Shown: positions 7,839 to 21,789 of the stretch, in pieces
Layout: the number at the start of each line of letters is the position of its first letter
How positions within the stretch are numbered: position 1 is the first letter of the stretch
Source: an uncultured Lachnoclostridium sp.
GTDB taxonomy: Bacteria; Bacillota; Clostridia; Lachnospirales; Lachnospiraceae
Reading direction: 5' to 3'
Length of the DNA: 64,000 bases
NCBI GenBank assembly: GCA_944381625.1
Contig: CALWLW010000008.1
Span: 62,001-126,000 of the forward strand
Program-made: the position numbers and the translations under genes
The notes under the pieces: generated by a model
Seen by the model: only the letters and a program-made list of their open reading frames with translations
Told to the model about the DNA's origin: nothing
The model's database searches: none

Positions 7839-9218
7839 TTACTCTGCTTTTAAATACGCCCTGCAGGCCTCCATCTCTTTTTCCATGGCTTCCCGGCCGG
7901 GCGCGCCGGCGGTCAGCCTCTTATTTACGCAGGTTTCCAGAGAAATGGCTTCGTAGATGTCATCCTCAAATACCGGGCTTACTTCTTTGTATTCCTCCAT
8001 AGTCAGGTCATCCAGCGCCTTTCCCTGATCGATACAGTACAGCACCAGGCGTCCCACGATACCGTGGGCATCCCGGAACGGCACGCCGCGCTTTACCAGA
8101 TAATCCGCCGCGTCTGTAGCGTTGGTAAATCCGTGTCTCGCGCTGTCTCTCATGCGGTCCTTCCGGAACGTGAGCGTATCCAGCATCCCGGTGAACAGAG
8201 CGATGCAGCCTTTTGTGGTATCCATGGCGTCAAAGGCCAGTTCTTTGTCTTCCTGCATGTCTTTATTGTAAGCCAGCGGAAGTCCTTTCATGGTGGTCAG
8301 AAGCGACGTCAGTGCCCCGTAGACCCGTCCGGTCTTGCCGCGCACCAGCTCCGCAATATCCGGGTTCTTCTTCTGGGGCATGATGGAGCTGCCGGTGCTG
8401 TACCCGTCGTCGATCTCCACAAACTGATATTCGTTGCTGTTCCAGAGGATGATCTCCTCGCAGAAACGGCTCAGGTGCATCATGATGACGGACATGGCCG
8501 ACAGGTATTCAATCAGATAATCCCGGTCGGATACAGCGTCCATACTGTTCGCCATGGGGCCGTAAAATCCAAGCAGGCCAGCCGTATATTCCCGGTCCAG
8601 AGGATATGTGGTCCCTGCCAGAGCACCCGCGCCCAGCGGACAGTAATTCATTCTCTCATAAATATCATGCAGGCGCAGCCGGTCCCTTTTGAACATTTCA
8701 AAATAAGCGCCCATATGATGAGCCAGCGTAATCGGCTGGGCCTTCTGCAGATGCGTAAAGCCCGGCATGACCGTCTCCGTATTCTCTTCCATAATGCGCA
8801 GAAGCACTTCCAGCAGTTTCTTCAGGAGTTCATCCGTCTCCTGCACCTCCTGTCTGGTGTACAGACGCATATCCAGCGCCACCTGGTCGTTGCGGCTCCT
8901 TCCTGTATGCAGCTTCTTGCCCACGTCTCCGATCCGGTCAATCAGATTCGCCTCCACAAAGCTGTGAATATCCTCGTATTCCTCCGTGATGGGAAGCGTT
9001 CCGGCGTCCACATCGTTCAGAATCCCCTGCAGGCCCTCCAGAATCCGGTCTCGCTCTTCCTCTGTCAGGATCTCCTGCTTCGCCAGCATCTTCACATGCG
9101 CCATGCTTCCTTCAATATCCTGTCTGTAAAATTTCTGATCAAAAGAGATGGATGCGTTGAACCGGTACACCAGTTTGTCCGTCTCTTTTGTAAAACGTCC
9201 GCCCCACAACTGTGCCAT
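7839..9218 (-). CDS. argH: Argininosuccinate lyase
   Basis: ArgH splits argininosuccinate into arginine and fumarate, the last step of arginine synthesis. The 459-residue protein carries the fumarase/aspartase superfamily signature GSSIMPQKKNPD near residue 280, whose Ser is the catalytic base. Other family motifs are the HTGRSRNDQVALDMRL block near 108 and TLAHHMGAYF near 160. AAAGGAAG precedes the ATG. No other arg gene is in the window. The 334-bp upstream region holds a GC-rich hairpin but no recognised arginine operator or T-box. Confidence 0.96.
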   Translation of the reverse strand: MAQLWGGRFTKETDKLVYRFNASISFDQKFYRQDIEGSMAHVKMLAKQEILTEEERDRILEGLQGILNDVDAGTLPITEEYEDIHSFVEANLIDRIGDVGKKLHTGRSRNDQVALDMRLYTRQEVQETDELLKKLLEVLLRIMEENTETVMPGFTHLQKAQPITLAHHMGAYFEMFKRDRLRLHDIYERMNYCPLGAGALAGTTYPLDREYTAGLLGFYGPMANSMDAVSDRDYLIEYLSAMSVIMMHLSRFCEEIILWNSNEYQFVEIDDGYSTGSSIMPQKKNPDIAELVRGKTGRVYGALTSLLTTMKGLPLAYNKDMQEDKELAFDAMDTTKGCIALFTGMLDTLTFRKDRMRDSARHGFTNATDAADYLVKRGVPFRDAHGIVGRLVLYCIDQGKALDDLTMEEYKEVSPVFEDDIYEAISLETCVNKRLTAGAPGREAMEKEMEACRAYLKAE

Positions 9219-9552: not shown

Positions 9553-10320
9553 TTATTTTTTTCTGGAGATCGTATAATATGCCAGCGCCACGCTGATTCC
9601 CCCCAACATATTGCCCAGCGTCACCCAAAGTAAATTATGTACATATCCTGCCACAGAAATTCCTGCCACTCCATTGGGAGCCAGAAGGCCGACCGCCATC
9701 ACCGTCATGTTGGCGATGCTGTGTTCAAACCCGCAGGCCATGAACACGTAAATACACCAGAATATCATGATCAGTTTGCCGGACTCGGATTTCATTTTGG
9801 TAGCACACCATACTGCCAGGCACACCAGGATATTACAGAAAATCGCTTTCACAAAAAGCTGAGGCGCTGTACCGCCCATCTTCGCGGCCGCGGTGGTGGC
9901 AAAATACGTTCCCACATCTCCGGTGGGGATTCCCGCAAAACAGAACAGAAACGCTGCTGCCAGGGAACCTGCCAGGTTACCCACGTAACAGAAAATCCAG
10001 AGTTTCGCAGTATCTGCCCAGGACACAGCCTTGGATAAAGATCCGGACATCATAACAAAATTATTGCCGGTAAACAGCTCTGCTCCCGCCATGACCACAA
10101 GGCTCAGTGCAGAAGCAAAGGAAAACGGCTGAATCACTTTGACTAAAGTGTTGCCTGCCGCCGTGAGATGTCCTCCCAGTGTGAAAGTCACAAAACCTCC
10201 AAAGGCAATAAAAATACCCGCTACCACGGCTGCCACAAAATAGCCCAGCGGATTATTTTTCATCAAAGCGGCCTTTCCTTTCGCTGCATTACATACATTA
10301 TTAAATTCCTCGCTAAACAT
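9553..10320 (-). CDS. Formate/nitrite transporter (FNT) family channel
   Basis: A pentameric inner-membrane channel family that moves formate, nitrite or hydrosulfide. The 255-residue protein has six membrane segments and the FNT signatures AELFTGNNF (about residue 85) and CGFEHSIANMT (about 195), whose His lines the pore. The ATG at 10320 is chosen over one two codons upstream because GGAGG lies 6 nt before it. In an anaerobe, formate export from pyruvate formate-lyase is plausible, but no pfl gene is nearby and FocA, NirC and HSC types cannot be separated here. Confidence 0.9.
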   Translation of the reverse strand: MFSEEFNNVCNAAKGKAALMKNNPLGYFVAAVVAGIFIAFGGFVTFTLGGHLTAAGNTLVKVIQPFSFASALSLVVMAGAELFTGNNFVMMSGSLSKAVSWADTAKLWIFCYVGNLAGSLAAAFLFCFAGIPTGDVGTYFATTAAAKMGGTAPQLFVKAIFCNILVCLAVWCATKMKSESGKLIMIFWCIYVFMACGFEHSIANMTVMAVGLLAPNGVAGISVAGYVHNLLWVTLGNMLGGISVALAYYTISRKK

Positions 10321-10460: not shown

Positions 10461-10487
10461 AACCTTCGTTGTGAAACAAAGCAACAG

Positions 10488-10560
10488 GCTTCCGTGGCTC
10501 AGTTGGTAGAGCACTTCACTCGTAATGAAGGGGTCGCCGGTTCGAGTCCGGCCGGGAGCT
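10488..10560 (+). tRNA. tRNA-Thr (anticodon CGT)
   Basis: A 73-nt cloverleaf: acceptor GCTTCCG/CGGGAGC (one G-U), D arm GCTCAGTTGGTAGAGC, anticodon stem CTTCA/TGAAG with loop CTCGTAA, and T arm GCCGG-TTCGAGT-CCGGC. Anticodon CGT reads ACG, threonine. CCA is not encoded. It is a single tRNA unit with its own promoter and terminator. It borders the pilus island, but no duplicated 3' end was found that would mark an integration site. Confidence 0.95.
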
Positions 10561-10571
10561 TTTTCAAAAGG

Positions 10572-11153: not shown

Positions 11154-12587
11154 TCAGCCGAACATCTTTTTTATCAGCTCACTTTTATCCGCCACGCTCC
11201 TTGGCATGTACCGGCGGATCACCTGCTGGGAGGACGCAAAGCCCATCAGCTCCGCCACCATGTCGGAGCTGGCCCCGGCACGCACTGCGCGTACCGCATA
11301 GGTATCCCGGAGCATCCGCGGCGTCACTGTGCCGATCCCGCAGGCATGACCCCTCCTCATGAGCACCGCCCTCATCCGGTCGATCCTCACCGGCCTCCTC
11401 CCGGAGCCTCCCAGTACAAAGCCGTCCGGCTCCCCCTGATACTCCTTTTTGATCTGACCCAGCTGCCCTGCCAGGAAATCCGGCAGCGGCACCTCCCTGC
11501 GTTTCCTCCCGGACAGCCGTTCCAGTTCATAGTGCCGTTCCTCCGCACCGGCCGTCCCGGCCTCCCTTTTTATGGATACAAAGTATTCCAGGCGCAGCTT
11601 CTTCCCTTCCAGGTCCACATCCCTCCAGCGCAGCGCCGCCGCTTCGCTTAAGGTGATCCCGGTATAGAGCACCAACCCGAACCCGATTCCCAGGGGATAC
11701 CCCCCTTCATCCCGGTAGGCGGCCAGCAGCGGCTCCAGCATGCGCACCTGGTCCTCGCTCAGCCACTCCTGCTCCTCCCATACGTTTTTGCTCCTCAAAG
11801 TCCAGGAGGGCTCCGTGCAGGGATTTTTTTCCACCAGCCCGGATTTCTGGGCATCCCGCATGCACCCGCTCAGCACCGACAGGGTGTTGCGTACCGTCCC
11901 TTCCGTCATGCGGCCGTTCCTTGTCCCGGACAGGGGCATATCCCCAAGCCCGTTGATCCAGCCGGACACTTTCTCTTCCGTCAGTTCCTCCAGGCGGCAC
12001 GGTCCCAGCGCCGGCAGCACGTGCCGCTCCATGGTCTCCGCGTACATCCGGATCGTCGTCCCCTTCACCACATGGGGCAGGATGCTCCGAAGCCACACAT
12101 ACACCCAGTCTTCCAAAGTGATGATCCCAGAAGCGTCCCCTTTCTGGAATGCTTCCCGCTTCACCTCCAGGGCCGGGTCGTACTGCCTCTCCAGGCAGTC
12201 CCCCCTTCCCGGGCGGGCACGGCCGCAGCCGCAGTCTGTCATCTTCCCGTTCTTCAGATCCCTGGTGGCAATGCTTTTCTCTTTTCCGCAGTCACACCGG
12301 CATATGACTTTCTGAAGCGTCGTGTGATTATCTAAATCTTCCGCGACGACTGTCAGTTTTCCGTATCGTTTCCCTATCATTTCTTCCGCGGTAGAACGAA
12401 TGCAGCCGCAGCTTTTCCTGCGGCCGCTTTTCAGCAGATATCCTTCCACTTTGCAGGTATTGCCGCAGTCGCAGCGGCAGTACCAGAGGGCCACCCGCTG
12501 GCGGCCGGCCCGGCCGTAACCGGCAGACCCGGTTACAACCAGCTTCCCGAATCGTTCCCCGGTAATGTCCCTACCGGTCCTCGGCAT
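11154..12587 (-). CDS. Degenerate tyrosine-recombinase-like protein with N-terminal Cys-rich repeats
   Basis: A 477-residue protein. Two repeats at the N terminus (about 8-62 and 68-121) each read G-x-RF/RY-GKL-x-V, then CRCDCG, then a closing CGC, with Cys at 37/39/41/60/62 and 96/98/100/119/121, as in zinc-binding modules of phage DNA-binding proteins. A SAM-like core-binding domain (about 155-265) and an integrase catalytic fold (about 275-475) follow. Catalytic positions are eroded: Arg I is Thr312 (TGITLSE), the HxxR box is RMLR with Arg424, the next His is Asp428, and the late His is Phe450. Only Arg427 and Tyr460 remain. It overlaps the basal pilin gene by 17 bp with its own AGGAT site, so it belongs to the pilus operon. 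It probably binds DNA but may not cut; a regulator or accessory factor of the upstream switch is one possibility. Confidence 0.75.
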   Translation of the reverse strand: MPRTGRDITGERFGKLVVTGSAGYGRAGRQRVALWYCRCDCGNTCKVEGYLLKSGRRKSCGCIRSTAEEMIGKRYGKLTVVAEDLDNHTTLQKVICRCDCGKEKSIATRDLKNGKMTDCGCGRARPGRGDCLERQYDPALEVKREAFQKGDASGIITLEDWVYVWLRSILPHVVKGTTIRMYAETMERHVLPALGPCRLEELTEEKVSGWINGLGDMPLSGTRNGRMTEGTVRNTLSVLSGCMRDAQKSGLVEKNPCTEPSWTLRSKNVWEEQEWLSEDQVRMLEPLLAAYRDEGGYPLGIGFGLVLYTGITLSEAAALRWRDVDLEGKKLRLEYFVSIKREAGTAGAEERHYELERLSGRKRREVPLPDFLAGQLGQIKKEYQGEPDGFVLGGSGRRPVRIDRMRAVLMRRGHACGIGTVTPRMLRDTYAVRAVRAGASSDMVAELMGFASSQQVIRRYMPRSVADKSELIKKMFG

Positions 12588-13254
12588 TGGTATCCTGCCC
12601 CTTTCTGTTCCGGTATCCTGCTGCCAGCACAATCGCTGCCAGGGAAATCCCTGCCAGGCAGATCCATAGCGCTAGGTTTGCGCTGTCCCCCGTCTTCGGG
12701 GACGTCACCGCGTTCGTCTGGGACGCGGGCACCGCCGTACCTGTGCTGTCCGTGTCGTCTCCGCCGCCTCCGCCGGAACCTCCTTTCCCACGGTAGCTGT
12801 TCTCAAACCGGATCGTATCCGTTTTCTCCGTGCCTTCGTCTTTTACGGCCCACAGCTCCGTGTTCAGGCCCCCGTCCGCGGCGTTGGTCACCCGGACCGT
12901 CACCTGGTAAACTGCGGTGTCATAGGTGCACCGGTTATGCCCCATGTCCTTCTGGGTGATCCGGTAGGTATAGTCCCCGGGCACACTGTAGGCCACCGGC
13001 CCAAACAGCCTCTGGCTGGCCCCATGCATCACCAGCGTCGTCTCTGCCGGCATGGGCGCATCCGCCGCCACTGCCTCCAACGTTACCTGGTATTCCGCAT
13101 CCGACGGGATGGATTTTCCCGTCACCGCCACCTCCACCGGAATCGTCGCCGTGCCTGCAGCCTCTGCCGCCTGCGCCGGAATGTGCGCCGCGGCAAACAA
13201 TACCGGAAGGAGCAGCATTGCGCAGAACTTCCCGGCTTTCTGGAATATCTTCAT
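12571..13254 (-). CDS. Basal (anchor) pilin, FctB-like
   Basis: A 227-residue cell-wall protein with a signal peptide ending near AQAAEAA and a single pilin domain. Its family pattern is YTYRITQKDM then a Tyr/Asp-rich YDTAVYQVTVRVT strand, as in the Spy0128-type isopeptide-bonded pilins. A Gly-rich linker follows, then the sorting signal SPKTG at about 185-189, a hydrophobic helix and a short basic tail (RNRKGQ). SPKTG resembles LPXTG and differs from the xxPTG motifs of the other two pilins, so it is the best candidate for wall anchoring by a housekeeping sortase. GGAGG precedes the ATG, which follows the sortase stop by 1 nt. Confidence 0.8.
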   Translation of the reverse strand: MKIFQKAGKFCAMLLLPVLFAAAHIPAQAAEAAGTATIPVEVAVTGKSIPSDAEYQVTLEAVAADAPMPAETTLVMHGASQRLFGPVAYSVPGDYTYRITQKDMGHNRCTYDTAVYQVTVRVTNAADGGLNTELWAVKDEGTEKTDTIRFENSYRGKGGSGGGGGDDTDSTGTAVPASQTNAVTSPKTGDSANLALWICLAGISLAAIVLAAGYRNRKGQDTNAEDR

Positions 13255-13255
13255 C

Positions 13256-14026
13256 TCAGGCACCTCCTTCCTGTATTTCATTCTCCGACCCCAGCCGCCC
13301 GAATACGATCACGCGGCCGTTGGTCTCTGCTTCCGCACAGGTGGACAGTCCGATGATCCGGTCGCCTTCCCGGATCCCGATCTCCCGGTACTGTACCGCC
13401 TGTTCTTTTATATAGTCCAGCAATTCTCCTGTCCCTTCCCCCACCGCCTCAGACAGGCCATAGATCTGCCGGTCATAGGCATCCGCCTCCACACAGGCAA
13501 ACAGAGTGATGGGACAGGTGCTGCCCGGCAGGTACAGCGTACCTGTCGGGTGGTCTTCAAAATATGTCCGGTCCGTGAATTCCACCACATCCCCGAACAT
13601 GGCGCCGTTGTCCATATGGTGTCCGTATACCAGCGTATACGGATCGGAAAAATCCGGGCTGTTCCGGCTCGCCATGAAAATGGAACCGGACAGGGCGAAC
13701 TCCCCGTACACGTCAAGGTTCACATACTCCATGTCCGTCTCTCCCTGCACCACCGGGTAGTCGATATGCGTACCGTCCACTGTCAGCCACGCCCGGACAT
13801 CCGGGTTGACCGCCTGCAGCTCCGCCAGGGTGGGATTACCCTCTCCGGCGCTGTCTGCAGAGGGTTTGAACTGAAGGAGGTCGCTGGAGACAAACGCGCC
13901 CCGGTATACTGCCCAGGTATCCCAGAGGGAATACGCCCCGTACACAAACATCAATGCGATCAGGAGCAGGGCAACAAAGCTGATGACCCGGTTGCCTGCC
14001 CTGGCAAGCCTGGCGGCTGTCTCCAT
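13256..14026 (-). CDS. Pilus sortase, class B-type
   Basis: A 256-residue transpeptidase with an N-terminal membrane anchor (about 14-36). It has the sortase catalytic triad: His136 in YGHHMDNGAMF, Cys230 in LSTC and Arg238 in NGRVIVFGRL. The region between His and Cys includes the long helix-containing insertion typical of class B sortases (residues about 185-225). In S. pyogenes the pilin polymerase Spy0129 is also of class B type and recognises an xxPTG signal. Here it sits between the backbone and basal pilin genes and most likely joins NPPTG and VSPTG proteins to pilin lysines. AAAGGAGG precedes the ATG. Confidence 0.9.
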   Translation of the reverse strand: METAARLARAGNRVISFVALLLIALMFVYGAYSLWDTWAVYRGAFVSSDLLQFKPSADSAGEGNPTLAELQAVNPDVRAWLTVDGTHIDYPVVQGETDMEYVNLDVYGEFALSGSIFMASRNSPDFSDPYTLVYGHHMDNGAMFGDVVEFTDRTYFEDHPTGTLYLPGSTCPITLFACVEADAYDRQIYGLSEAVGEGTGELLDYIKEQAVQYREIGIREGDRIIGLSTCAEAETNGRVIVFGRLGSENEIQEGGA

Positions 14027-14092
14027 GGAGTTCCTCCTTTCTTACGGTTCCCATACCGCAAGCCTTCGTATGTACGAAAAGGCCTTCAGGGA

Positions 14093-15211
14093 TTAGAATT
14101 CGTTATTTCTCCTGCGCAGGAACAGAACTGCAACACCTGCGGCTGCGGCTACCATAATGATGTAAGGAGCTACGGTCATGGCGATGCCGGTGGGAGAGAC
14201 TGCGTCTTTGGTGTTGGTAACAATTACGTTATCTGTACTTGCAGATTTATTCTGCGTTGCAACAGTCTGCGCGTTATCGCTTGAAGTCACGGTTACAGGC
14301 GTCTCATTTATCGTAGCCGTCGTAGTATATCCTTCTGTTTTTGCAATATTCTCAACAATCTCATATTTCACATCAGAAGGAATACCTGAAATGGTCACCT
14401 CGCTCTCATTACCAAGTGAAATACCGGTAATAGAAACCGTGCCATCTGAAAGGAATGTATATGTCTGGCCACTATAGTCAAATTGCTCTCCTGCATCGCC
14501 TTCGGTCAGCTTGATAGTGAAGGAGAATGTATCTCCCATGGTAGCCATGTCACCGTCAATGACTTTTTTCAATTTTAATGCGTAGGTATTATAGGTTGCT
14601 ACATACCCGACATTCTTAGCCGTGATCGCGTTGCCCTCAGAGTCCACATATTTATACACATCGCCCTCTTTTTGAATAGAAGCAGCTTTCTCGAGCATAG
14701 CTACAGAAGTAATTTTGTAATCACTTTCTCCTGCATCTGGGTTCACCACATATACGTCCATGTAACGGGTCGGATTCGTATCGTTTACAATATCCGGGTT
14801 ATCATCTGCATCCACAAGGCTTTCTGTAATAACATAGCGATAAATCCCCGGTTCCGGGAAAGTCACATCGGAAAAATCCACAGAAACATCTTTACTGACG
14901 CTTCCAGCTGTGACAGTCATATTTGGAGTAAATTCAGCGTCGCCAATCACAACCCCATTCGTGATGCCGGTTTTGATTTCTGGAGTCGTTGCAGTAGCGG
15001 GAATCTCCTCACCTGCTGCAATTGCATAATCAAATGTAACATTCGGAACTTTTGCAGCCGAGTCTGTAACTGTCAGTATCTTTTTAAATGTCACCTCGCT
15101 GGTGCCTCCAGTAGCCGCAAACGCCGTCATCCCAACCATGGATACCATCATGGCTCCTGCCATCATTGCTACCGCCAGACGGCGGGAAATGTTTTTGTTT
15201 TGATGTTTCAT
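14093..15211 (-). CDS. Major backbone pilin, FctA/Spy0128-like
   Basis: A 372-residue secreted pilin. The signal peptide ends near GMTAFAATGG (about residue 32). Domain 1 (about 35-200) has the pilin pattern FPEPGIYRYVITES, where the Glu is a likely isopeptide catalyst, and an early TFKKIL lysine. Domain 2 (about 210-335) has ALKLKKVIDGD and ends VIVTNTKD, like the second domain of FctA-type pilins. The sorting signal is VSPTG (338-342), close in form to the EVPTG of Spy0128, followed by a hydrophobic helix and RRRNNEF. It is AT-richer than the sortase gene beside it. GAGGAAG precedes the ATG. Backbone role is inferred from order, size and motif. Confidence 0.85.
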   Translation of the reverse strand: MKHQNKNISRRLAVAMMAGAMMVSMVGMTAFAATGGTSEVTFKKILTVTDSAAKVPNVTFDYAIAAGEEIPATATTPEIKTGITNGVVIGDAEFTPNMTVTAGSVSKDVSVDFSDVTFPEPGIYRYVITESLVDADDNPDIVNDTNPTRYMDVYVVNPDAGESDYKITSVAMLEKAASIQKEGDVYKYVDSEGNAITAKNVGYVATYNTYALKLKKVIDGDMATMGDTFSFTIKLTEGDAGEQFDYSGQTYTFLSDGTVSITGISLGNESEVTISGIPSDVKYEIVENIAKTEGYTTTATINETPVTVTSSDNAQTVATQNKSASTDNVIVTNTKDAVSPTGIAMTVAPYIIMVAAAAGVAVLFLRRRNNEF

Positions 15212-15383
15212 AACATACTTCCTCTCTTTTCTTTTTATAGGATTGCCTTTCGGCCATGTATCGGCGGATTCTCCGCCTCTATCTCAGGAAAACCTGCGGT
15301 CATCTTCTGCCAACATATCCAGTCCCCGTACTTTTCCTGCGATATTCTTTAATAGATTTTCAAGCGCCCTGTCCCGGACGTTT

Positions 15384-15956
15384 TTACAGGCCGGAACGCC
15401 GGATCACGGTAATGACCTTGCCTTTCGCTTCACTCTCGCTCACCGCGCCAAAATACCGGCTGTCCTTCGCCCCTTCCCGGTAATCGCAGAGGATGAAGTA
15501 TTCATCCTCCGCCAATGTCACCGGGTATTCAGGTCCGCCCTCATACTGAGGCGTCGTGTAGTAAATGTCATTCTCCAGCACAGTGCTGCCGTTGACCACC
15601 AGTGTCGCCTGGTCTGTTACTTCAACCATATCACCGCCCCGTGCTACAACCCTGCCCACATGAACCGCGCCGTCCTTTTCAAATACCATCACGTCGCCGC
15701 TGATATAATCGTCCGCCAGGCGGTAATAAAACAACAGATCTCCGGCGGAAATATGCGGCAACATATCGTCGTTTGCCATAGGCGCGACACCGAATACCAT
15801 CCCGAACAGGATCATCAGCAGTACAGCCATGGCTGCCAAGCGGGCAAAGAAAGAACGAATATCCTCCTTGTCCGCACAGCGGCGGCGTCTTTTCCGAATG
15901 ACCTCTTCGGGGGAAAGCAGGGCTTTTCCCTCAGGACGGCGTTTAACCATCGGCAT
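15384..15956 (-). CDS. Signal peptidase I-like pilus assembly protein, SipA-type, active-site dyad replaced
   Basis: A 190-residue protein with one membrane helix (about 35-58) and a type I signal peptidase fold. In the box that normally reads S-M-x-P, this protein has NDDMLPH, so Ser is Asp64. In the box that normally contains the catalytic Lys (K-R-V), it has VGRVVARGGD, so Lys is Gly101. From established knowledge, S. pyogenes SipA, needed for FCT pilus polymerisation, carries the same Asp and Gly replacements. This is therefore most likely a pilus assembly factor, not a peptidase. The start (ATG at 15956) overlaps the preceding small gene by 14 bp and has only a weak ribosome binding site, implying translational coupling. 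Confidence 0.85.
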   Translation of the reverse strand: MPMVKRRPEGKALLSPEEVIRKRRRRCADKEDIRSFFARLAAMAVLLMILFGMVFGVAPMANDDMLPHISAGDLLFYYRLADDYISGDVMVFEKDGAVHVGRVVARGGDMVEVTDQATLVVNGSTVLENDIYYTTPQYEGGPEYPVTLAEDEYFILCDYREGAKDSRYFGAVSESEAKGKVITVIRRSGL

Positions 15957-16176
15957 CACCGCCCATTCTGCGGCCCATGCGGGCCAGCGCCCGGTCGCGT
16001 TCATCAATCAGCGCCTGGTAATAGGCCGCCTGTTCATCGTAGACCAGCTGGTAAAGGCGCTGGAGATTTTCCAGCTGCCGCCAGACGTCGGACTCATCCA
16101 CGCCGCCGAGCAGTTTCTTCCGGAATTTCATGGCGGACAGCGCATCCGCGATGTTCTGCATGGTCCGCATAGGCAT
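15943..16176 (-). CDS. Small soluble coiled-coil protein of the pilus operon
   Basis: A 77-residue protein with no signal peptide or membrane helix. The segment KKLLGGVDESDVWRQLENL followed by YQLVYDEQ resembles the membrane-binding N-terminal motif of DivIVA-like proteins (F-x-K-x-G-x-D-x-x-D-V then a coiled coil), but the homology is weak. Its ATG overlaps the adhesin stop as TAATG. A second ATG at 16170 has better spacing (8 nt) from GGGAG and may be the true start. Position between adhesin and SipA suggests a cytoplasmic role in pilus localisation or expression; function is unknown. Confidence 0.65.
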   Translation of the reverse strand: MPMRTMQNIADALSAMKFRKKLLGGVDESDVWRQLENLQRLYQLVYDEQAAYYQALIDERDRALARMGRRMGGDADG

Positions 16177-19100
16177 TACTCCCGACGACGGTATCTAATA
16201 GATCTTCTTATCAAGTACATGGCAACAAACCACACAGCAACTCCAGATGCTGACATCATCATGATCAGGTAAATGGCATTGTTATCCTCAAATCCCGTGG
16301 GTGGATTCACATTTCTTTCATTCGTAAATGTGACTGTAGTATTTTCTGTAATCCCATCTGCCCCTGTTGTATAGGTTCCCGCTTCTTGTGAGACATTTAT
16401 ATTGCCATCTACGCCTATTGTTGTTTTGTATCCGTCTGTATTGTAACCATTGGCATCATAGGTACCAGATTCTATGATTGAAACCACTGCTCCTTTTTTC
16501 ACTTTATCGATAACATGTCTTCCTTTATCACTTATAAAAAAATTTCCAGATCGACCGCCAGATATCGTGTACCGGAACGGGAATTTGGCTGAACTATCTG
16601 TGTTTCCCATATTTCCAACCACGTTTTTAATCACTGTCACTTTGTAACCAATCACATGCACACGAAAATCATATTGGCCACTATCGTGTGTATCTGCAGT
16701 CTCGTGATCATAACAGTCCGATTCGTGTGTATCTCCATTGGTACTTTGGGTCTGCTGGTCTTTATTAATCGACGTTTTATTCGTAACATCCATCGATCCA
16801 ACTTTTACTTTAAGTGTATAATCTGTGTCTTTTTCTGGTGCGGTCTCCTCAGTCAAAGCTCCCGTAATATAATCATAAGCCTCAATTGTCACCACAGGTT
16901 TATCTCCACTGACAGGGGGGCACTCATGATTATCAGCTAAATCATGCCATCCTGTTTCCTCTCCAATTTCTGAAACATCGATAGTACCACCAATGTCAAT
17001 CCATTGATCTTCACAGGAAACTTCTGGATAAAACACATGAACATGGGCAGTCCCATGTACCGGAACTACAGAAGTATCTACTGCCGCCGTTCCGGCAGGA
17101 TCACGGTTCGCATCGTCTTTATGCGGCGCTTCTACTGGTTTCACCGTACAGGTCACCGCATATTCAGTACAGTCTGTCAGCCCTGCAATCTGTGTGCTGT
17201 TCATCGGTACAGTACATGCAGCATCGGAATACCAGCTGCCAGAATTCGCCTGTGTCATAGCTGAAATCTTATAATAATAGGTATCAGCTCCATGTGAGAA
17301 TGAGTACACAATATCCACATAGCGGTTATTCGTTCCATTCGGTGTATAATCTTTACTGGCTGTCGTTATATACTCCAGCATATCACTCACACTTGCCGCA
17401 TTTGTCACATAAATTGTCTGGTCTTTGCTGGTAGCCTGATAATCGACAGGAATATTTACCAACGGCTGCGGATACGCTTTTACCTTATCTTTCTCATCAT
17501 CCCCATCCGCATCCGCATAGATTGCAGTATCAGACGTATTGGTCGGAATGTTATTTCCTCCAAAACAACCTGAGTCAGTATATTTGATATCGATCTCTAC
17601 CACCAGCATCTTGCCGCTGAATGGGCCGTTTTCTGCTCCAGTAACATAATTTTCAGCATCTGAATAATTGAACCCTTTGACTGTAACCATACCATCATCC
17701 ACAGAAACATCTGCCATATACGGTATATTGTTTCCATCAAAAGTATAAGTTCCATTACTGTACCCTGCTGCATTCTGAGCAAAGACTTTAATATCACTTG
17801 TTGCATTTCCAGTCGCCAACTCAAAATTTGCTGCAAGATAATCGCGTACTTCCGTCTCTGCATCCAGTGAGATACCTGCTCCTCCTGCGGCTTCTTTAAA
17901 CGCATCTACCAGCTCCGTGACATCATTCGCCACTTTGTAATAAGCTGTACCAGGCTGTCCTACAGTATCCTCATCATTCATACTTCTGGCTGCCGGATAA
18001 TTAGAGGAGACATAATTCATATATTTATCCATATTTGATTTTACAGAATTCGGATCAGAATCGTCTACGATACTGATGGAATATACTTTCCCCCCCAGTC
18101 CGTAAACTGGATTGTTCCATCCCCCGACATTTGTAGCTGTCGACGCTTTTATTTTATAAGCGTTTTCAATCGCTCCGTTTGCTGTATTTATGGCATCCGA
18201 ACTGTTCCATCCATTAAATCCGGGGCCTCCGTCTGTAAACAAAATAGCAACTTTTTGTGCATCAGCTCTTGCCCGGCTACTTCGGAGTTCTTCGTTTGCC
18301 TTTTCCATTCCTTTATCAGAATAAGTTGATCCATCTGGGCTAAGACTGCATATCTTAGTTTTCAGGGTGTTTACATCGTTTTGACTGTCAAGTGCAGTTA
18401 GGTTCTGACTTATTGAGGCATTGTCGGCAAACGTAACTATCCCCACCTGGTAATGTCCCTGGCTGTCCTGTTGATATAATTCATCCACGAAACTGCATGC
18501 TGCCTCTTTCAAGGCTCCAATACGACGGACATATACACTTTGCCTCCTTGTCAATGGGGATCTTCCAGCATACCATCTTCCATTTTGATAGTAGACTGCG
18601 CTCCCATTGTTTGATCCATTTGGTGATGCTGTTGTATAGTAGCTGGTAGCGTTATTATCATTTCCATACATTTCTGCTTTACCTTTATCCAACTTATCGT
18701 GGGAGATTGTCTCGCCAAATTCCCGGCCCATACTGCCAGAACAGTCAAGTACCAATACAAAGTCTGTATCCGTTATTTTTTCTCCCGCAGTCCCTGTCAC
18801 ATAGGAGGTCAACGTCAAGGTATAAGTACCATCCAGATTTGCCTCCACATACTTGTCCAGGTGCACTTCATCTGTATGTTCCATGATGTTGTCTGGCTGT
18901 CTTTCATAAACCAGATATACATTTTTCACATTTACCGGTTCATTGGGTCCACCAATTACCGGTTCCGTCTCACTCCCAATATCATCCACCCAGCCATATC
19001 CTCCCCAATGTGTTTGTGTTTTAGATACTGCTTTCGTACAGGTACGGTACATCACCACTGAAAAATCGTTCTCGTACGCAGGAGCGTTATCTCCCGCCCA

Positions 19101-20576
19101 TACGCCGTAGTAATAAGTCGTTGTCGTGGTCACTTCACGTTTCCGAAACACTCCCTCCCAATATCCGTCTCCTCTTTCCACATCTGTTGTGTACCGAATT
19201 AATCCTGCTTTTAGCTTTGTAATTTCACTGCCAGTGGTAAATCCGCCTGTTGCTGAAAAATCATATTGATATGTATGTCCATTCGCACGGATCTCTCCAA
19301 TACCCTGTTGTGCCACCTGATCCAAAAGCACGACTTCTTGTGCACCTGCTTCAACTGAAATGTCCGTTCCAATTCCATCACCAATAGAAGCACCTTCTTC
19401 GTCCACTGGAAGCAACGTAACCGGAAGTTCCATTACCACATTATCTGGTGAAGTTATGGTCCAGGTGATCACAAACGTCGAAAAGGAAGGGGCTTCAACT
19501 GCAACCACTTGAGAATCACCCGTGCTTTTCTCGGCTTCTGGCACTTCCGTCAGATCTGTCTCGAAAACAGGCGTCACCTGTTTCAGCGTCTCTACGTCCG
19601 CCACACTACCCTGTTCGTCTTCAACCAAATGATGAACTGTGGTTTCCGCCTCTGCGGGAATCACATCCTCTTTCATAATGAATGCAACTGTAACAGGAAG
19701 CAGAGGTTCAATCTCCTCCCCATCGTATTCAAAATGAACATCCAACGCCACATAGCCTTCGTAATCTATCTCTTCCTGCTCCATAGTGGATTCTACGTCT
19801 TTTGTTTTCGCTGCTTCTGCAACCAGAACACTTCCTTCCGGAACAGCACCATCAGGAACCCAAACGTTCACGCTAATATCCTGCACGGACGCCTCATAAA
19901 TATTTGCGTCCGCCATGAATGCCTCTTCTTCTTCACTTTCTTCTACGGCGTCAGCCTCATCTGCCGTGGTCTGACCATCCTCCGTTTCCGGCACGGTACT
20001 CTCCACGGTTCCGTCTTCCGTATCAGGTTCCGTTACGCTGCCTTCGCCGGTTTGCTCTTTACCGGCCTCAGGTTCCGTGGCCTCTTCTGCGTTCTCACTG
20101 TCCGCAGCCTCTCCGTCGGTCTCTGCTGGGGCTTTGTCGGTTTCTTCCGCCGAATTTTCTGATTCATCTGCCGGATTTTCTGATTCATCCGCCGGATTCT
20201 GAACTTTTTCGCTCTCTTCAGCCTCTGTACCAGACTCCTGCCCGGCTTCATCAGCTGTACTGCCGCCCTCCGGTGTGCCGGCATCCGTCTCTTCCGCTGG
20301 TCCGGGCACTTCCTGGACCTCCCCGCCGGCCGAACTCTCTTCTTCCGTCACATCCGTCTCTTCTGCCTGTTCTTCCACAGCAGCGTCCGTCTCCACATTG
20401 CCCGTGTCTGTGTCTGTCTCCGCATTGTCTGCGTCTGCGTCTGTCTCCCCGCCTGCGTCCGGCTGGACATCACTCGTGGCGCTTGCGGAAACGAAAAGCT
20501 GATCCTTGTCCACTACGGACAGCACCAGCGTCAGCGCTACCAGCACTGCCAGGAATCTTTTCGCTTTCTTCCACAT
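16176..20576 (-). CDS. Large VWA-domain pilus tip adhesin
   Basis: A 1466-residue surface protein. A signal peptide (1-33) is followed by a low-complexity Asp/Glu/Ser/Thr/Ala stalk (about 34-220, with short repeats such as NPADESE), then beta-rich domains (about 225-380). A von Willebrand A domain begins near 600 with the MIDAS motif DCSGSMG (about 610) and FTDGGPG (about 785). Further repeats of pilin-like domains follow, the last with ITENTTVTFTNERN. The sorting signal is NPPTG (1424-1428), then a membrane helix and RRSIRYRRRE. VWA domains in Gram-positive pilus tips bind host ligands. The gene's middle is clearly AT-richer than its neighbours. GGGGAG precedes the ATG. It is first in the pilus operon, and its only good promoter lies in the invertible element, currently facing away. 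Confidence 0.88.
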   Translation of the reverse strand: MWKKAKRFLAVLVALTLVLSVVDKDQLFVSASATSDVQPDAGGETDADADNAETDTDTGNVETDAAVEEQAEETDVTEEESSAGGEVQEVPGPAEETDAGTPEGGSTADEAGQESGTEAEESEKVQNPADESENPADESENSAEETDKAPAETDGEAADSENAEEATEPEAGKEQTGEGSVTEPDTEDGTVESTVPETEDGQTTADEADAVEESEEEEAFMADANIYEASVQDISVNVWVPDGAVPEGSVLVAEAAKTKDVESTMEQEEIDYEGYVALDVHFEYDGEEIEPLLPVTVAFIMKEDVIPAEAETTVHHLVEDEQGSVADVETLKQVTPVFETDLTEVPEAEKSTGDSQVVAVEAPSFSTFVITWTITSPDNVVMELPVTLLPVDEEGASIGDGIGTDISVEAGAQEVVLLDQVAQQGIGEIRANGHTYQYDFSATGGFTTGSEITKLKAGLIRYTTDVERGDGYWEGVFRKREVTTTTTYYYGVWAGDNAPAYENDFSVVMYRTCTKAVSKTQTHWGGYGWVDDIGSETEPVIGGPNEPVNVKNVYLVYERQPDNIMEHTDEVHLDKYVEANLDGTYTLTLTSYVTGTAGEKITDTDFVLVLDCSGSMGREFGETISHDKLDKGKAEMYGNDNNATSYYTTASPNGSNNGSAVYYQNGRWYAGRSPLTRRQSVYVRRIGALKEAACSFVDELYQQDSQGHYQVGIVTFADNASISQNLTALDSQNDVNTLKTKICSLSPDGSTYSDKGMEKANEELRSSRARADAQKVAILFTDGGPGFNGWNSSDAINTANGAIENAYKIKASTATNVGGWNNPVYGLGGKVYSISIVDDSDPNSVKSNMDKYMNYVSSNYPAARSMNDEDTVGQPGTAYYKVANDVTELVDAFKEAAGGAGISLDAETEVRDYLAANFELATGNATSDIKVFAQNAAGYSNGTYTFDGNNIPYMADVSVDDGMVTVKGFNYSDAENYVTGAENGPFSGKMLVVEIDIKYTDSGCFGGNNIPTNTSDTAIYADADGDDEKDKVKAYPQPLVNIPVDYQATSKDQTIYVTNAASVSDMLEYITTASKDYTPNGTNNRYVDIVYSFSHGADTYYYKISAMTQANSGSWYSDAACTVPMNSTQIAGLTDCTEYAVTCTVKPVEAPHKDDANRDPAGTAAVDTSVVPVHGTAHVHVFYPEVSCEDQWIDIGGTIDVSEIGEETGWHDLADNHECPPVSGDKPVVTIEAYDYITGALTEETAPEKDTDYTLKVKVGSMDVTNKTSINKDQQTQSTNGDTHESDCYDHETADTHDSGQYDFRVHVIGYKVTVIKNVVGNMGNTDSSAKFPFRYTISGGRSGNFFISDKGRHVIDKVKKGAVVSIIESGTYDANGYNTDGYKTTIGVDGNINVSQEAGTYTTGADGITENTTVTFTNERNVNPPTGFEDNNAIYLIMMMSASGVAVWFVAMYLIRRSIRYRRRE

Positions 20577-20621: not shown

Positions 20622-20640
20622 ACATAATGTTTATTCTGTG
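20622..20640 (+). repeat. Left inverted repeat of the putative invertible element
   Basis: The 19-mer ACATAATGTTTATTCTGTG on the plus strand matches the reverse complement of 20914-20932 at 18 of 19 positions, including a perfect 14-bp block. It lies 46 bp upstream of the adhesin start. Confidence 0.85.
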
Positions 20641-20717
20641 GCTCCCTGACGGGGAAGCAACCGGGTGGCAGGTTTTTCCCTCCGGCTTTCCCGGATGATG
20701 GCCCCCATTTAAGCATA

Positions 20718-20761
20718 AAAACCAGACCGACGGGAAAATCCCCTCCTGTCGGTCTGGTTTT
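20718..20761. terminator. Strong terminator inside the invertible element
   Basis: AAAACCAGACCGAC (20718-20731) and GTCGGTCTGGTTTT (20748-20761) form a perfect 14-bp stem with a 16-nt loop and a T tract on each strand. In the present orientation it stops minus-strand transcription coming from the recombinase gene before it reaches the adhesin gene. Confidence 0.9.
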
Positions 20762-20837
20762 CATGCCTTTCTTTACACTTTTTTCTTCCCAGCCGGGATT
20801 TTAGCAGGAAATTTACATGATTTTGCTCAGATCAATC

Positions 20838-20866
20838 TTGTATTTCCCGGTTATCCCTGCTATAAT
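20838..20866 (+). promoter_or_regulatory. Sigma-A promoter inside the invertible element
   Basis: TTGTAT (20838-20843), 17-bp spacer, TATAAT (20861-20866). In the assembled orientation it points right, antisense to the recombinase gene, and its transcript would soon meet the hairpin at 20912-20944. Inversion would aim it at the pilus operon. Confidence 0.8.
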
Positions 20867-20911
20867 AAGTGAAAATGTAGTTCATTTTTATGTACTAACG
20901 GAAATCAGCCG

Positions 20912-20944
20912 CACACATAATAAACATTATGTGTGTATTTTTTT
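20912..20944 (+). terminator. Terminator-like hairpin overlapping the right inverted repeat
   Basis: CACACATAAT and ATTATGTGTG form a 10-bp perfect stem with an AAAC loop, followed by TATTTTTTT on the plus strand. It would end the short transcript made from the element's promoter in the OFF orientation before it crosses the recombinase gene. Confidence 0.65.
20914..20932 (-). repeat. Right inverted repeat of the putative invertible element
   Basis: Its reverse complement, ACATAATGTTTATTATGTG, differs from the left repeat at one position (A for C). It lies 18 bp from the 3' end of the intact tyrosine recombinase gene. Confidence 0.85.
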
Positions 20945-20949
20945 GCGCT

Positions 20950-21789
20950 TCAAAGCACCAGCCCCAGCTTGGACAGGAGCCTGGCCTGCTCTTCCCCGCT
21001 GACCATGGTGTATATCCGGGTGGTGTCCACGCTGGAATGTCCCAGCACGTCCGCCAGGGTGGCCAGGTTCTTTTCCTTCTTATAAAAAGTACACGCAAAA
21101 AGATGCCTCAGGTTATGGGGGAACACTTTCTGCCGGTCCACCCCTGCCTTTTCACACAGCGCTTTCATCTCCCGCCAGATATCGCTCCGGTTCACCGTCC
21201 TCCCACTCTTTGTCAGAAACAGGCTCCCCTTCTGAATCCCGCATATTTTCATATATTCCTTCAGTATCTTCTGCAGGCGTGTCGGCAGCAGCACGGTCCG
21301 CACTTTGCCCTTCAGCGTCACCCTTGCACTCCCCCTCCAGACTGCTTCCGCCGTGATAAACGGCAGCTCGCTGACCCGGATGCCTGTGGCACAAAGAGCC
21401 TGCATCAGATAATAAAGCCTTACTTTCTTCCCTTCCTTCGCCGCCATGAGCAGCTTCTGATATTCTTTCCTGGAAAGGTCCCTTCCGGAATCCCGGAAAG
21501 ATTTCTTCTGAATCTTCAAAAGTTTTACCACACACTCGTACCAGCCCATCTCCTTTAAGAAACGGTTCAGCGCCACCAGCATGGAATTGACGCTGGACGC
21601 CTCGTAGCGGTGTTCCAGATACTGCTTATATCCGATCACCCTCTCCTTGTCCACTTCCCCGTCCTCCACATATTCGTAAAACACCTTCAGATCATGAGTA
21701 TACTTCTGGATCGTGGCGCGGCTTTTTTCCTCCTCCGCCAGGCGCTCCCTCCAATGCTGGATCATGTCCGGTTCCAATTCATGTCCCAT
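20950..21789 (-). CDS. Tyrosine recombinase (likely DNA invertase of the pilus switch)
   Basis: A 279-residue integrase with a SAM-like core-binding domain (about 8-95) and a complete catalytic domain. Visible residues are Arg138 (ATGIRVSEL), a Lys near 162 (LKGKVRTVLLP), His225 and Arg228 (HNLRH), His251 (GHSSVDTTRIY) and Tyr260. Size and motifs match XerC/D-like invertases that flip promoters in fimbrial and flagellar switches. The start is the ATG at 21789 behind AAAGGAGA; the frame extends 34 codons further without a good ribosome site. Its 3' end abuts the right inverted repeat of the element upstream of the pilus operon, so it is the best candidate to catalyse that inversion. It could instead be the integrase of the whole island. 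Confidence 0.88.
   Translation of the reverse strand: MGHELEPDMIQHWRERLAEEEKSRATIQKYTHDLKVFYEYVEDGEVDKERVIGYKQYLEHRYEASSVNSMLVALNRFLKEMGWYECVVKLLKIQKKSFRDSGRDLSRKEYQKLLMAAKEGKKVRLYYLMQALCATGIRVSELPFITAEAVWRGSARVTLKGKVRTVLLPTRLQKILKEYMKICGIQKGSLFLTKSGRTVNRSDIWREMKALCEKAGVDRQKVFPHNLRHLFACTFYKKEKNLATLADVLGHSSVDTTRIYTMVSGEEQARLLSKLGLVL

What the first reader, a model, noticed from the sequence alone, without database searches (positions are those of the whole stretch)
20622..20932. Invertible promoter switch controlling a complete sortase-dependent pilus, assembled in the OFF state
Seen: 19-bp inverted repeats at 20622-20640 and 20914-20932 match at 18/19 positions. Between them lie a TTGTAT-17-TATAAT promoter on the plus strand and a 14-bp-stem terminator. 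An intact tyrosine recombinase gene ends 18 bp from the right repeat and the pilus operon starts 46 bp from the left one. No other good promoter was found for the adhesin gene. Inversion would put the promoter 105 nt from the adhesin ATG facing the operon, with the terminator behind it. Known: tyrosine recombinases flip promoters of fimbriae, flagella and capsules in other bacteria. Inferred: this element makes a whole FCT-like pilus phase-variable in a gut Firmicute.
Basis: partly seen in the sequence, partly recalled or inferred. Interest (0 to 1): 0.93.

Follow-up and report, generated by a model that had tools for sequence, protein, structure and literature searches.

The report
Flip-switch promoter for a bacterial pilus
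This bacterial genome holds a 311-base DNA segment with near-identical inverted ends, next to an intact recombinase gene, that likely flips to switch a predicted adhesive-pilus operon on or off; here its promoter points away from the pilus genes, and in a related genome the matching promoter points at them.

Summary
In detail: repeats 20622-20640 and 20914-20932 match at 18 of 19 positions, their 16-base core occurs nowhere else in the held assembly at up to one mismatch, and they bracket an outward promoter between an intact recombinase gene and a sortase-B pilus operon. Comparison supports the interpretation. Of 100 recombinase-family loci, 83 carry such a repeat pair at the recombinase 3' end (83 of the 89 with enough sequence; random-window control 8 of 1000). 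Promoters face the recombinase in 56, the cargo in 12, unclear in 15. A same-genus assembly (G002) holds one such element twice, in opposite orientations, 100% identical. Of eight pilus-type loci with the module, seven, window included, are OFF and one (G329) is ON. Flipping at this locus is not shown. A read-based paper on Clostridia invertons probably covers the same family (untested), so: new variant of a known kind.

The parts
20622..20640 (+). left (operon-side) inverted repeat / crossover site; no stable hairpin and no T-tract on the operon-directed strand
20914..20932 (-). right (recombinase-side) inverted repeat / crossover site
20641..20913 (.). 273-bp segment between the arms, predicted to invert
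   Evidence: inversion inferred from the family
20838..20866 (+). promoter TTGTAT-17-TATAAT with extended -10, now facing the recombinase 3' end (OFF)
   Evidence: not listed by the stricter scan
20713..20766 (.). strong hairpin inside the segment, likely a bidirectional terminator that would block read-through from the recombinase into the operon in both states
   Evidence: terminator function inferred, not listed
20911..20944 (+). recombinase-side site as hairpin plus T-tract (TTTTTTT at 20938-20944, outside the segment): predicted intrinsic terminator of the OFF transcript
20950..21789 (-). tyrosine recombinase, 279 aa; R138, K162, H225, R228, H251, Y260 (roles recalled) invariant in 17 aligned members
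16176..20576 (-). tip-adhesin-like surface protein, 1466 aa, VWA domain, C-terminal NPPTG sorting-like motif
15943..16176 (-). small operon gene, 77 aa; an 83-aa gene stands at the same place in L165 (G329) and L087
15384..16007 (-). signal peptidase I
14093..15211 (-). major pilin candidate, FctA and DUF7601 domains, sortase-B sorting signal (TIGR03065)
13256..14026 (-). class B sortase (TIGR03064 above cut-off); pilus role by context
12571..13281 (-). minor pilin candidate, FctA domain, SPKTG
11154..12587 (-). second tyrosine recombinase (INT), last gene, overlaps the minor pilin gene; the TTG-start ORF runs to 12632

Best explanation
Window 20622-20932 is most likely an invertible promoter switch, predicted to be flipped by the tyrosine recombinase encoded at 20950-21789, that would turn the predicted sortase-B pilus operon at 11154-20576 on or off. 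Shown by sequence: near-identical inverted sites, one clear outward promoter, a hairpin, an intact fixed recombinase gene, and only 45 bp between the left site and the operon's first ATG. In the assembled state the promoter faces the recombinase, and its transcript is predicted to stop at the right crossover site, a hairpin followed by seven T that lie outside the segment. Inferred: the recombinase binds the CATAA/TTATG half-sites, exchanges strands in the 6-bp spacer and inverts the segment; the promoter then reads through the left site, which lacks a T-tract, into the pilus genes. The central hairpin is predicted to stop read-through from the recombinase side in either state.
For: Anatomy. 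Family test: 83 of 100 recombinase-family loci (83 of 89 with more than 250 bp downstream) carry a repeat pair at the recombinase 3' end; pairs of that quality in 8 of 1000 random windows of the same loci, not matched for gene ends. 71 of 83 fit CATAA-N6-TTATG; the spacer agrees between the two copies in 70 of 71 although 57 different spacers occur (agreement is partly built in). Promoters 10-80 nt inside a site and facing it score at least 16.4 in 56 of 83 loci against 25 of 1660 shuffles; strict orientation 56 OFF, 12 ON, 3 close, 12 unclear. Of 23 pairs of loci with similar segments, 7 are inverted and 16 in the same orientation (pairs overlap, L042 and L051 are one sequence): L042/L051 100% over 282 bp, L034/L042 72% over 259, L036/L037 over 97, and four of 67-82 bp. 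L042 and L051 lie on one contig of G002, with 398 and 203 bp of identical sequence (arms included) around the reversed element and a single N exactly where L042's cargo-side match ends. Eight pilus-type loci with the module: seven OFF (window, L033, L087, L088, L176, L181, L228), one ON (L165, genome G329) with TTGAAA-17-TATAAT facing the operon. Terminator-like site on the recombinase side in 36 of 82 loci, on the cargo side in 9 of 82, discordant 29 against 2.
Against: No read, PCR or transcript data for this locus; the own-genome search found one orientation only. The promoter's -35 is weak and one search does not list it, while it lists a 9-of-12 operon-facing candidate across the right repeat. 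The nearest relative, G014, is also OFF, so the two closest loci show no flip; 16 of 23 similar pairs share orientation. The both-orientations case (G002) has a recombinase only 46% identical and could be a duplication that flipped. Six of 89 testable loci have no repeat pair; 15 of 83 give no clear orientation. The two sites differ at one position. In 17 of 20 sortase loci fetched, the ones most like this sortase after the window and G014, the recombinase was not found (four stretches are cut by contig ends). L181 lacks the T-tract, and the G014 hairpin is weaker (z -2.6).
Confidence: 0.88

Rival explanations
1. The element is a decayed or locked switch: once invertible, now fixed OFF, so the pilus is silent.
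For: Both closest loci (window, G014) are OFF; one mismatch between arms, in the left arm; only one orientation in the assembly.
Against: Recombinase is open and keeps all six catalytic positions; arms, promoter, hairpin and T-tract are kept in G014, where the recombinase is 70% identical; pilus ORFs are open.
Confidence: 0.07
2. The repeats are only terminators or regulator operators flanking an ordinary promoter, and the adjacent recombinase acts elsewhere.
For: The right site is terminator-like; repeat dyads could bind a regulator.
Against: A repeat pair follows the recombinase in 83 of 89 testable loci with diverse cargo genes; spacers differ between loci but agree within a locus in 70 of 71; inverted segments seen, one pair 100% identical; the core occurs nowhere else in the held assembly at up to one mismatch.
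Confidence: 0.03
3. The second tyrosine recombinase (INT, last operon gene) is the real or co-acting invertase, giving ON-state feedback as FimE does in E. coli (recalled).
For: INT overlaps the last pilin gene and is 81% identical in G014, higher than the first recombinase at 68%. Of five close paralogs in this genome, three follow long genes directly: L193 and L194 behind proteins with GBS104-like or VWA/DUF7601 domains, L197 behind a 603-aa protein without a Pfam hit.
Against: Not found behind the pilus genes in G329, G359, G180 and G362, which keep the switch. The other two paralogs (L195, L196) do not follow a surface-protein gene. Its box reads TPRMLRD and MGF where active members usually carry H (sequence; rule recalled). 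It sits 0.6 kb from a tRNA-Thr, as island integrases do, although no second copy of the tRNA end is in the window.
Confidence: 0.15

Closest known systems
Inverton group 139 with invertase group 35 (gut community, Clostridia; PMC11892184, passages and section 8 seen)
   Same: 33 invertons, 32 from Clostridia, nearly all with a nearby tyrosine-type recombinase; two examples span 257 and 255 bp; read-based orientation shifts over passages and between mucin carriers and supernatant.
   Different: The main text has no hit for sortase, pilus or pili; 'terminator' occurs once, as a future question about other motifs. The repeat motif is in a supplement I could not read, so identity with this family is likely but untested.
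E. coli fimS switch with FimB/FimE (described in passages of PMC2784873; 314 bp from an abstract in the listing; rest recalled)
   Same: Promoter between inverted repeats, tyrosine recombinases, drives a pilus operon.
   Different: Chaperone-usher pilus and two upstream recombinase genes (recalled); here a sortase-type pilus and one adjacent co-directional recombinase in a Gram-positive.
C. difficile cwpV switch with RecV (PMC2784873, passages seen)
   Same: Tyrosine recombinase, 21-bp repeats, 195-bp segment, surface protein, predicted intrinsic terminator at a repeat in the OFF transcript.
   Different: There the promoter is outside the segment and the terminator silences the gene; here the promoter is inside and the terminator would catch the OFF transcript before the recombinase gene. 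RecV not being beside its targets is recalled.
S. zooepidemicus SZO08560 invertible promoter (PMC2654543, passages seen)
   Same: Gram-positive, recombinase gene adjacent, promoter inverted in five reads, LPXTG surface protein.
   Different: One surface protein with 10-bp repeats, not a pilus operon; the paper's pilus loci are not described as inverted in the passages seen.
B. breve sortase-dependent pili (PMC9187656, title, start of abstract and passages seen)
   Same: Phase-variable sortase-dependent pili in a gut commensal.
   Different: Replication slippage switch, not inversion.

Membership tests
Invertible promoter switch (inverton) | Inverted repeats bracketing a promoter that faces out of one end | tested here: met
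   weak -35, not listed
Invertible promoter switch (inverton) | Repeats conserved with the recombinase | tested here: met
   83 of 89 testable loci
Invertible promoter switch (inverton) | Both orientations exist in the family | tested here: met
Invertible promoter switch (inverton) | Both orientations at this locus in one population | not testable with these tools
   no reads; one orientation in the assembly
Tyrosine recombinase | Phage_integrase match and R-K-H-R-H-Y residues | tested here: met
   PF00589 9.4e-26; invariant columns in 17 rows
XerC/XerD | Equivalog cut-offs of NCBIfam | tested here: not met
   TIGR02225 121.6 against 329.6 bits; TIGR02224 114.6 against 335.15
Sortase-assembled pilus (FCT-like) | Sortase, FctA-type pilin, signal peptidase and tip-like adhesin in one operon | tested here: met
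Sortase-assembled pilus (FCT-like) | Polymerised pilus on cells | not testable with these tools
   sequence only
Inverton group 139 / invertase group 35 | Shared repeat motif and recombinase group | not tested

The most novel reading that the evidence does not exclude
The crossover site does double duty: as recombination site and as an intrinsic terminator that works only beside the fixed T-tract next to the recombinase, so the same kind of site stops the OFF transcript and lets the ON transcript through; and the ON operon carries its own second recombinase that resets the switch.
Probability: 0.25. Interest if true: 0.82.

Novelty: new variant of a known kind. Interest (0 to 1): 0.66.

Why it matters
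It would make a whole Gram-positive adhesive pilus an on/off trait of single cells in what is likely a gut commensal, through a recombinase-plus-switch module whose recombinase is found in 83 of 397 sampled genomes of the same family and that stands before pilus, other surface-protein and unrelated genes. The site-as-terminator feature is simple to test and would explain how an outward promoter can sit beside a recombinase gene without reading antisense into it.

Tried and rejected
Island hypothesis: tRNA-Thr at 10487-10561 beside INT suggested an integrated island, but the tRNA 3' end has no second copy in the window at up to 3 mismatches; the rest of the genome was not searched for it. Paper searches showed, in the listings returned (20 of 29 papers, 20 of 49, all), no paper on an invertible promoter for a sortase-assembled pilus; open-licence papers only. 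PMC10939037 has none of my five terms; PMC9244547 holds 'invertible promoter' only in its reference list.

In the quick tree (SH-aLRT only) L050 and L051 were left out (broken or partial gene); pilus linkage needs 6 changes, at least 3 by starred branches, against a shuffled mean of 7.8 with 6 of 500 shuffles as low: clustered, but not one clade. No shuffles were printed for the ON/OFF label. Loose promoter calls (57 OFF, 17 ON, 9 unclear) were replaced by the stricter ones. L110 (recombinase 50%, a 27% sortase match, LPITG protein) was left out of the pilus set because its sortase match is weak. One search failed through my script error and was repeated.

Full report
Observation. The 16-base core of the repeat occurs in the held 3.43-Mb assembly (30 contigs, 94.7% complete) only at these two places, one exact and one with a mismatch; its reversed control does not occur. 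The promoter has a weak -35 (3 of 6) and an extended -10; the stricter scan does not list it, and lists instead a 9-of-12 operon-facing candidate at 20953-20926, whose transcript would meet the central hairpin first.

Gene content. Reading from the left repeat on the minus strand: a 1466-aa VWA surface protein with NPPTG near its end, a 77-aa gene, a signal peptidase I, an FctA/DUF7601 pilin, a class B sortase above its NCBIfam cut-off, an FctA minor pilin, and a second tyrosine recombinase, INT, whose gene overlaps the minor pilin gene. G014, same genus, has the same order; there the sortase is 86%, signal peptidase 78%, minor pilin 72% and INT 81% identical, but the pilin only 36%, and the adhesin's main match covers its first 67 residues at 65%. 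The assembly parts are kept and the exposed parts have diverged.

Recombinase family. 19 further stretches came from whole genomes and 80 named loci from the alignment scan, the best 80 of 569; with the window, 100 were examined. In 83 a repeat pair of 14-37 bp lies at the recombinase 3' end. Of the 17 without one, 11 have at most 243 bp left before the contig ends and 6 (L099, L104, L136, L143, L150, L152) have enough: 83 of 89 testable loci. L051 is a second copy of the L042 site, so distinct sites with repeats number 82. Control: pairs scoring at least 12 in 8 of 1000 windows placed at random in the same loci, not matched for gene ends; all 83 called pairs reach that score.

Site. In 71 of the 83 the arm fits CATAA-N6-TTATG: half-sites around an asymmetric 6-nt spacer, as expected for a tyrosine recombinase (recalled rule). 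There are 57 different spacers and none is palindromic; in 70 of 71 the two copies in a locus agree. Agreement is in part built in, since arms were chosen for similarity; the variety between loci is not.

Orientation. Promoters lying 10-80 nt inside a site and facing it score at least 16.4 in 56 of 83 loci, against 25 of 1660 shuffles. Strict calls: 56 face the recombinase, 12 the cargo gene, 3 are close, 12 unclear. On a quick recombinase tree of 102 rows the ON/OFF label needs 11 changes among the labelled rows, 13 of them ON (no shuffle control), so state follows descent little if at all. Cargo is diverse: 57 first genes (the window's and 56 of the 64 others of at least 150 aa, picked mechanically) hit 77 Pfam families, none in more than 5 proteins.

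Inversion seen. In G002, same genus as the window, one contig holds the element twice, with 398 and 203 bp of identical sequence (arms included) on the two sides and the 330-bp element reversed at 100% identity; where L042's cargo-side match ends stands a single N, as at a scaffold join, and the other copy runs to the contig end. I read this as one site assembled in both orientations. A true duplication that then flipped would also show inversion. Of 23 pairs of loci with similar segments, 7 are inverted and 16 are not; the longer inverted ones are L042/L051, L034/L042 (72% over 259 bp) and L036/L037 (97 bp).

Pilus loci. Eight pilus-type loci with this module were compared: OFF in the window, G014 (L033), two Eisenbergiella MAGs (L087, L088), G180 (L176), G362 (L181), G359 (L228); ON in G329 (L165), whose operon has the order adhesin, small gene, signal peptidase, pilin, sortase, minor pilin. 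The L087 stretch ends within the pilin, so its sortase was not seen. Six of the eight recombinases, the window's included, fall in one 21-row group (SH-aLRT 98). The sortase was found in 45 of 397 sampled genomes of the family; of 20 such loci fetched, 3 had the recombinase, so this switch is not a general feature of such pili.

Terminator in the crossover site. The window's right site folds to -12.6 kcal/mol (z -5.4) and is followed by ATTTTTTT; the left site does not fold (z 0); in G014 the right site is weaker (-9.9, z -2.6). Over 82 loci the recombinase-side site is terminator-like in 36 and the cargo-side site in 9; 29 have it on the recombinase side only, 2 on the cargo side only (sign test 2e-7). 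Loci share ancestry, so the p value overstates independence. Seven of eight pilus loci have the T-tract (L181 lacks it). It lies outside the segment and so would stay put on inversion. I infer that it ends the OFF transcript before it runs antisense into the recombinase gene.

Second recombinase. INT has five close paralogs in this genome at 54-69%. Two stand directly behind genes for proteins with adhesin-type domains (L193, L194), one behind a 603-aa protein without a Pfam hit (L197), two elsewhere. Its place in the operon would make it ON-state specific, which recalls FimE feedback, but it was not found behind the pilus genes of G329, G359, G180 or G362, and two of its usual catalytic positions look changed (recalled rule). 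I give a role in the switch 0.15.

Literature. Read-based profiling of a gut community reports Clostridia inverton group 139 linked to a tyrosine recombinase group, with orientation shifts over passages and between mucin carriers and supernatant (PMC11892184, passages and section 8). Size, class and gene neighbourhood fit this family; motifs could not be compared. Precedents for parts of the mechanism are fimS, cwpV/RecV and SZO08560 (passages). The listings showed no paper on an invertible promoter for a sortase-assembled pilus; the library holds open-licence papers only.

Verdict. A real, probably active promoter-inversion switch for a predicted sortase pilus, OFF as assembled. Shown: anatomy, conservation, both orientations among relatives. 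Inferred: inversion here, direction-dependent expression, termination at the site.

Noticed in passing
L193 7337-7363 / 8407-8433; L194 6973-6991 / 8042-8060 (G000 contigs C3 and C1): Two more tyrosine recombinase genes in the same genome sit inside 1.1-kb inverted-repeat pairs (85% and 89% complementary) just upstream of GBS104-like or VWA/DUF7601 protein genes that are followed by an INT paralog: possible self-inverting switches.
   Followed up: partly
L195 11704-11748 / 13131-13175 (G000 contig C6): 45-nt inverted repeats, 89% complementary, around a tyrosine recombinase gene next to another recombinase and an INT paralog.
   Followed up: no
L045 9495-9517 / 9699-9721 (G000 contig C17): A second switch of the same family in this genome, promoter facing the recombinase, before a 2492-aa protein with a collagen-like adhesin match far below cut-off.
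   Followed up: partly
window 20880-20900 and the same place in L033, L085, L087, L088, L090: A short ATGTA-containing motif recurs between the -10 box and the facing site; seen by eye only.
   Followed up: no
L046, L100, L112, L117, L120, L121, L125, L135, L155, L157, L163: Eleven contigs end within 243 bp of the recombinase stop, as if assembly broke at the switch.
   Followed up: no
window 10487-10561: tRNA-Thr (cgt) 0.6 kb from the INT gene; no second copy of its 3' end in the window.
   Followed up: partly
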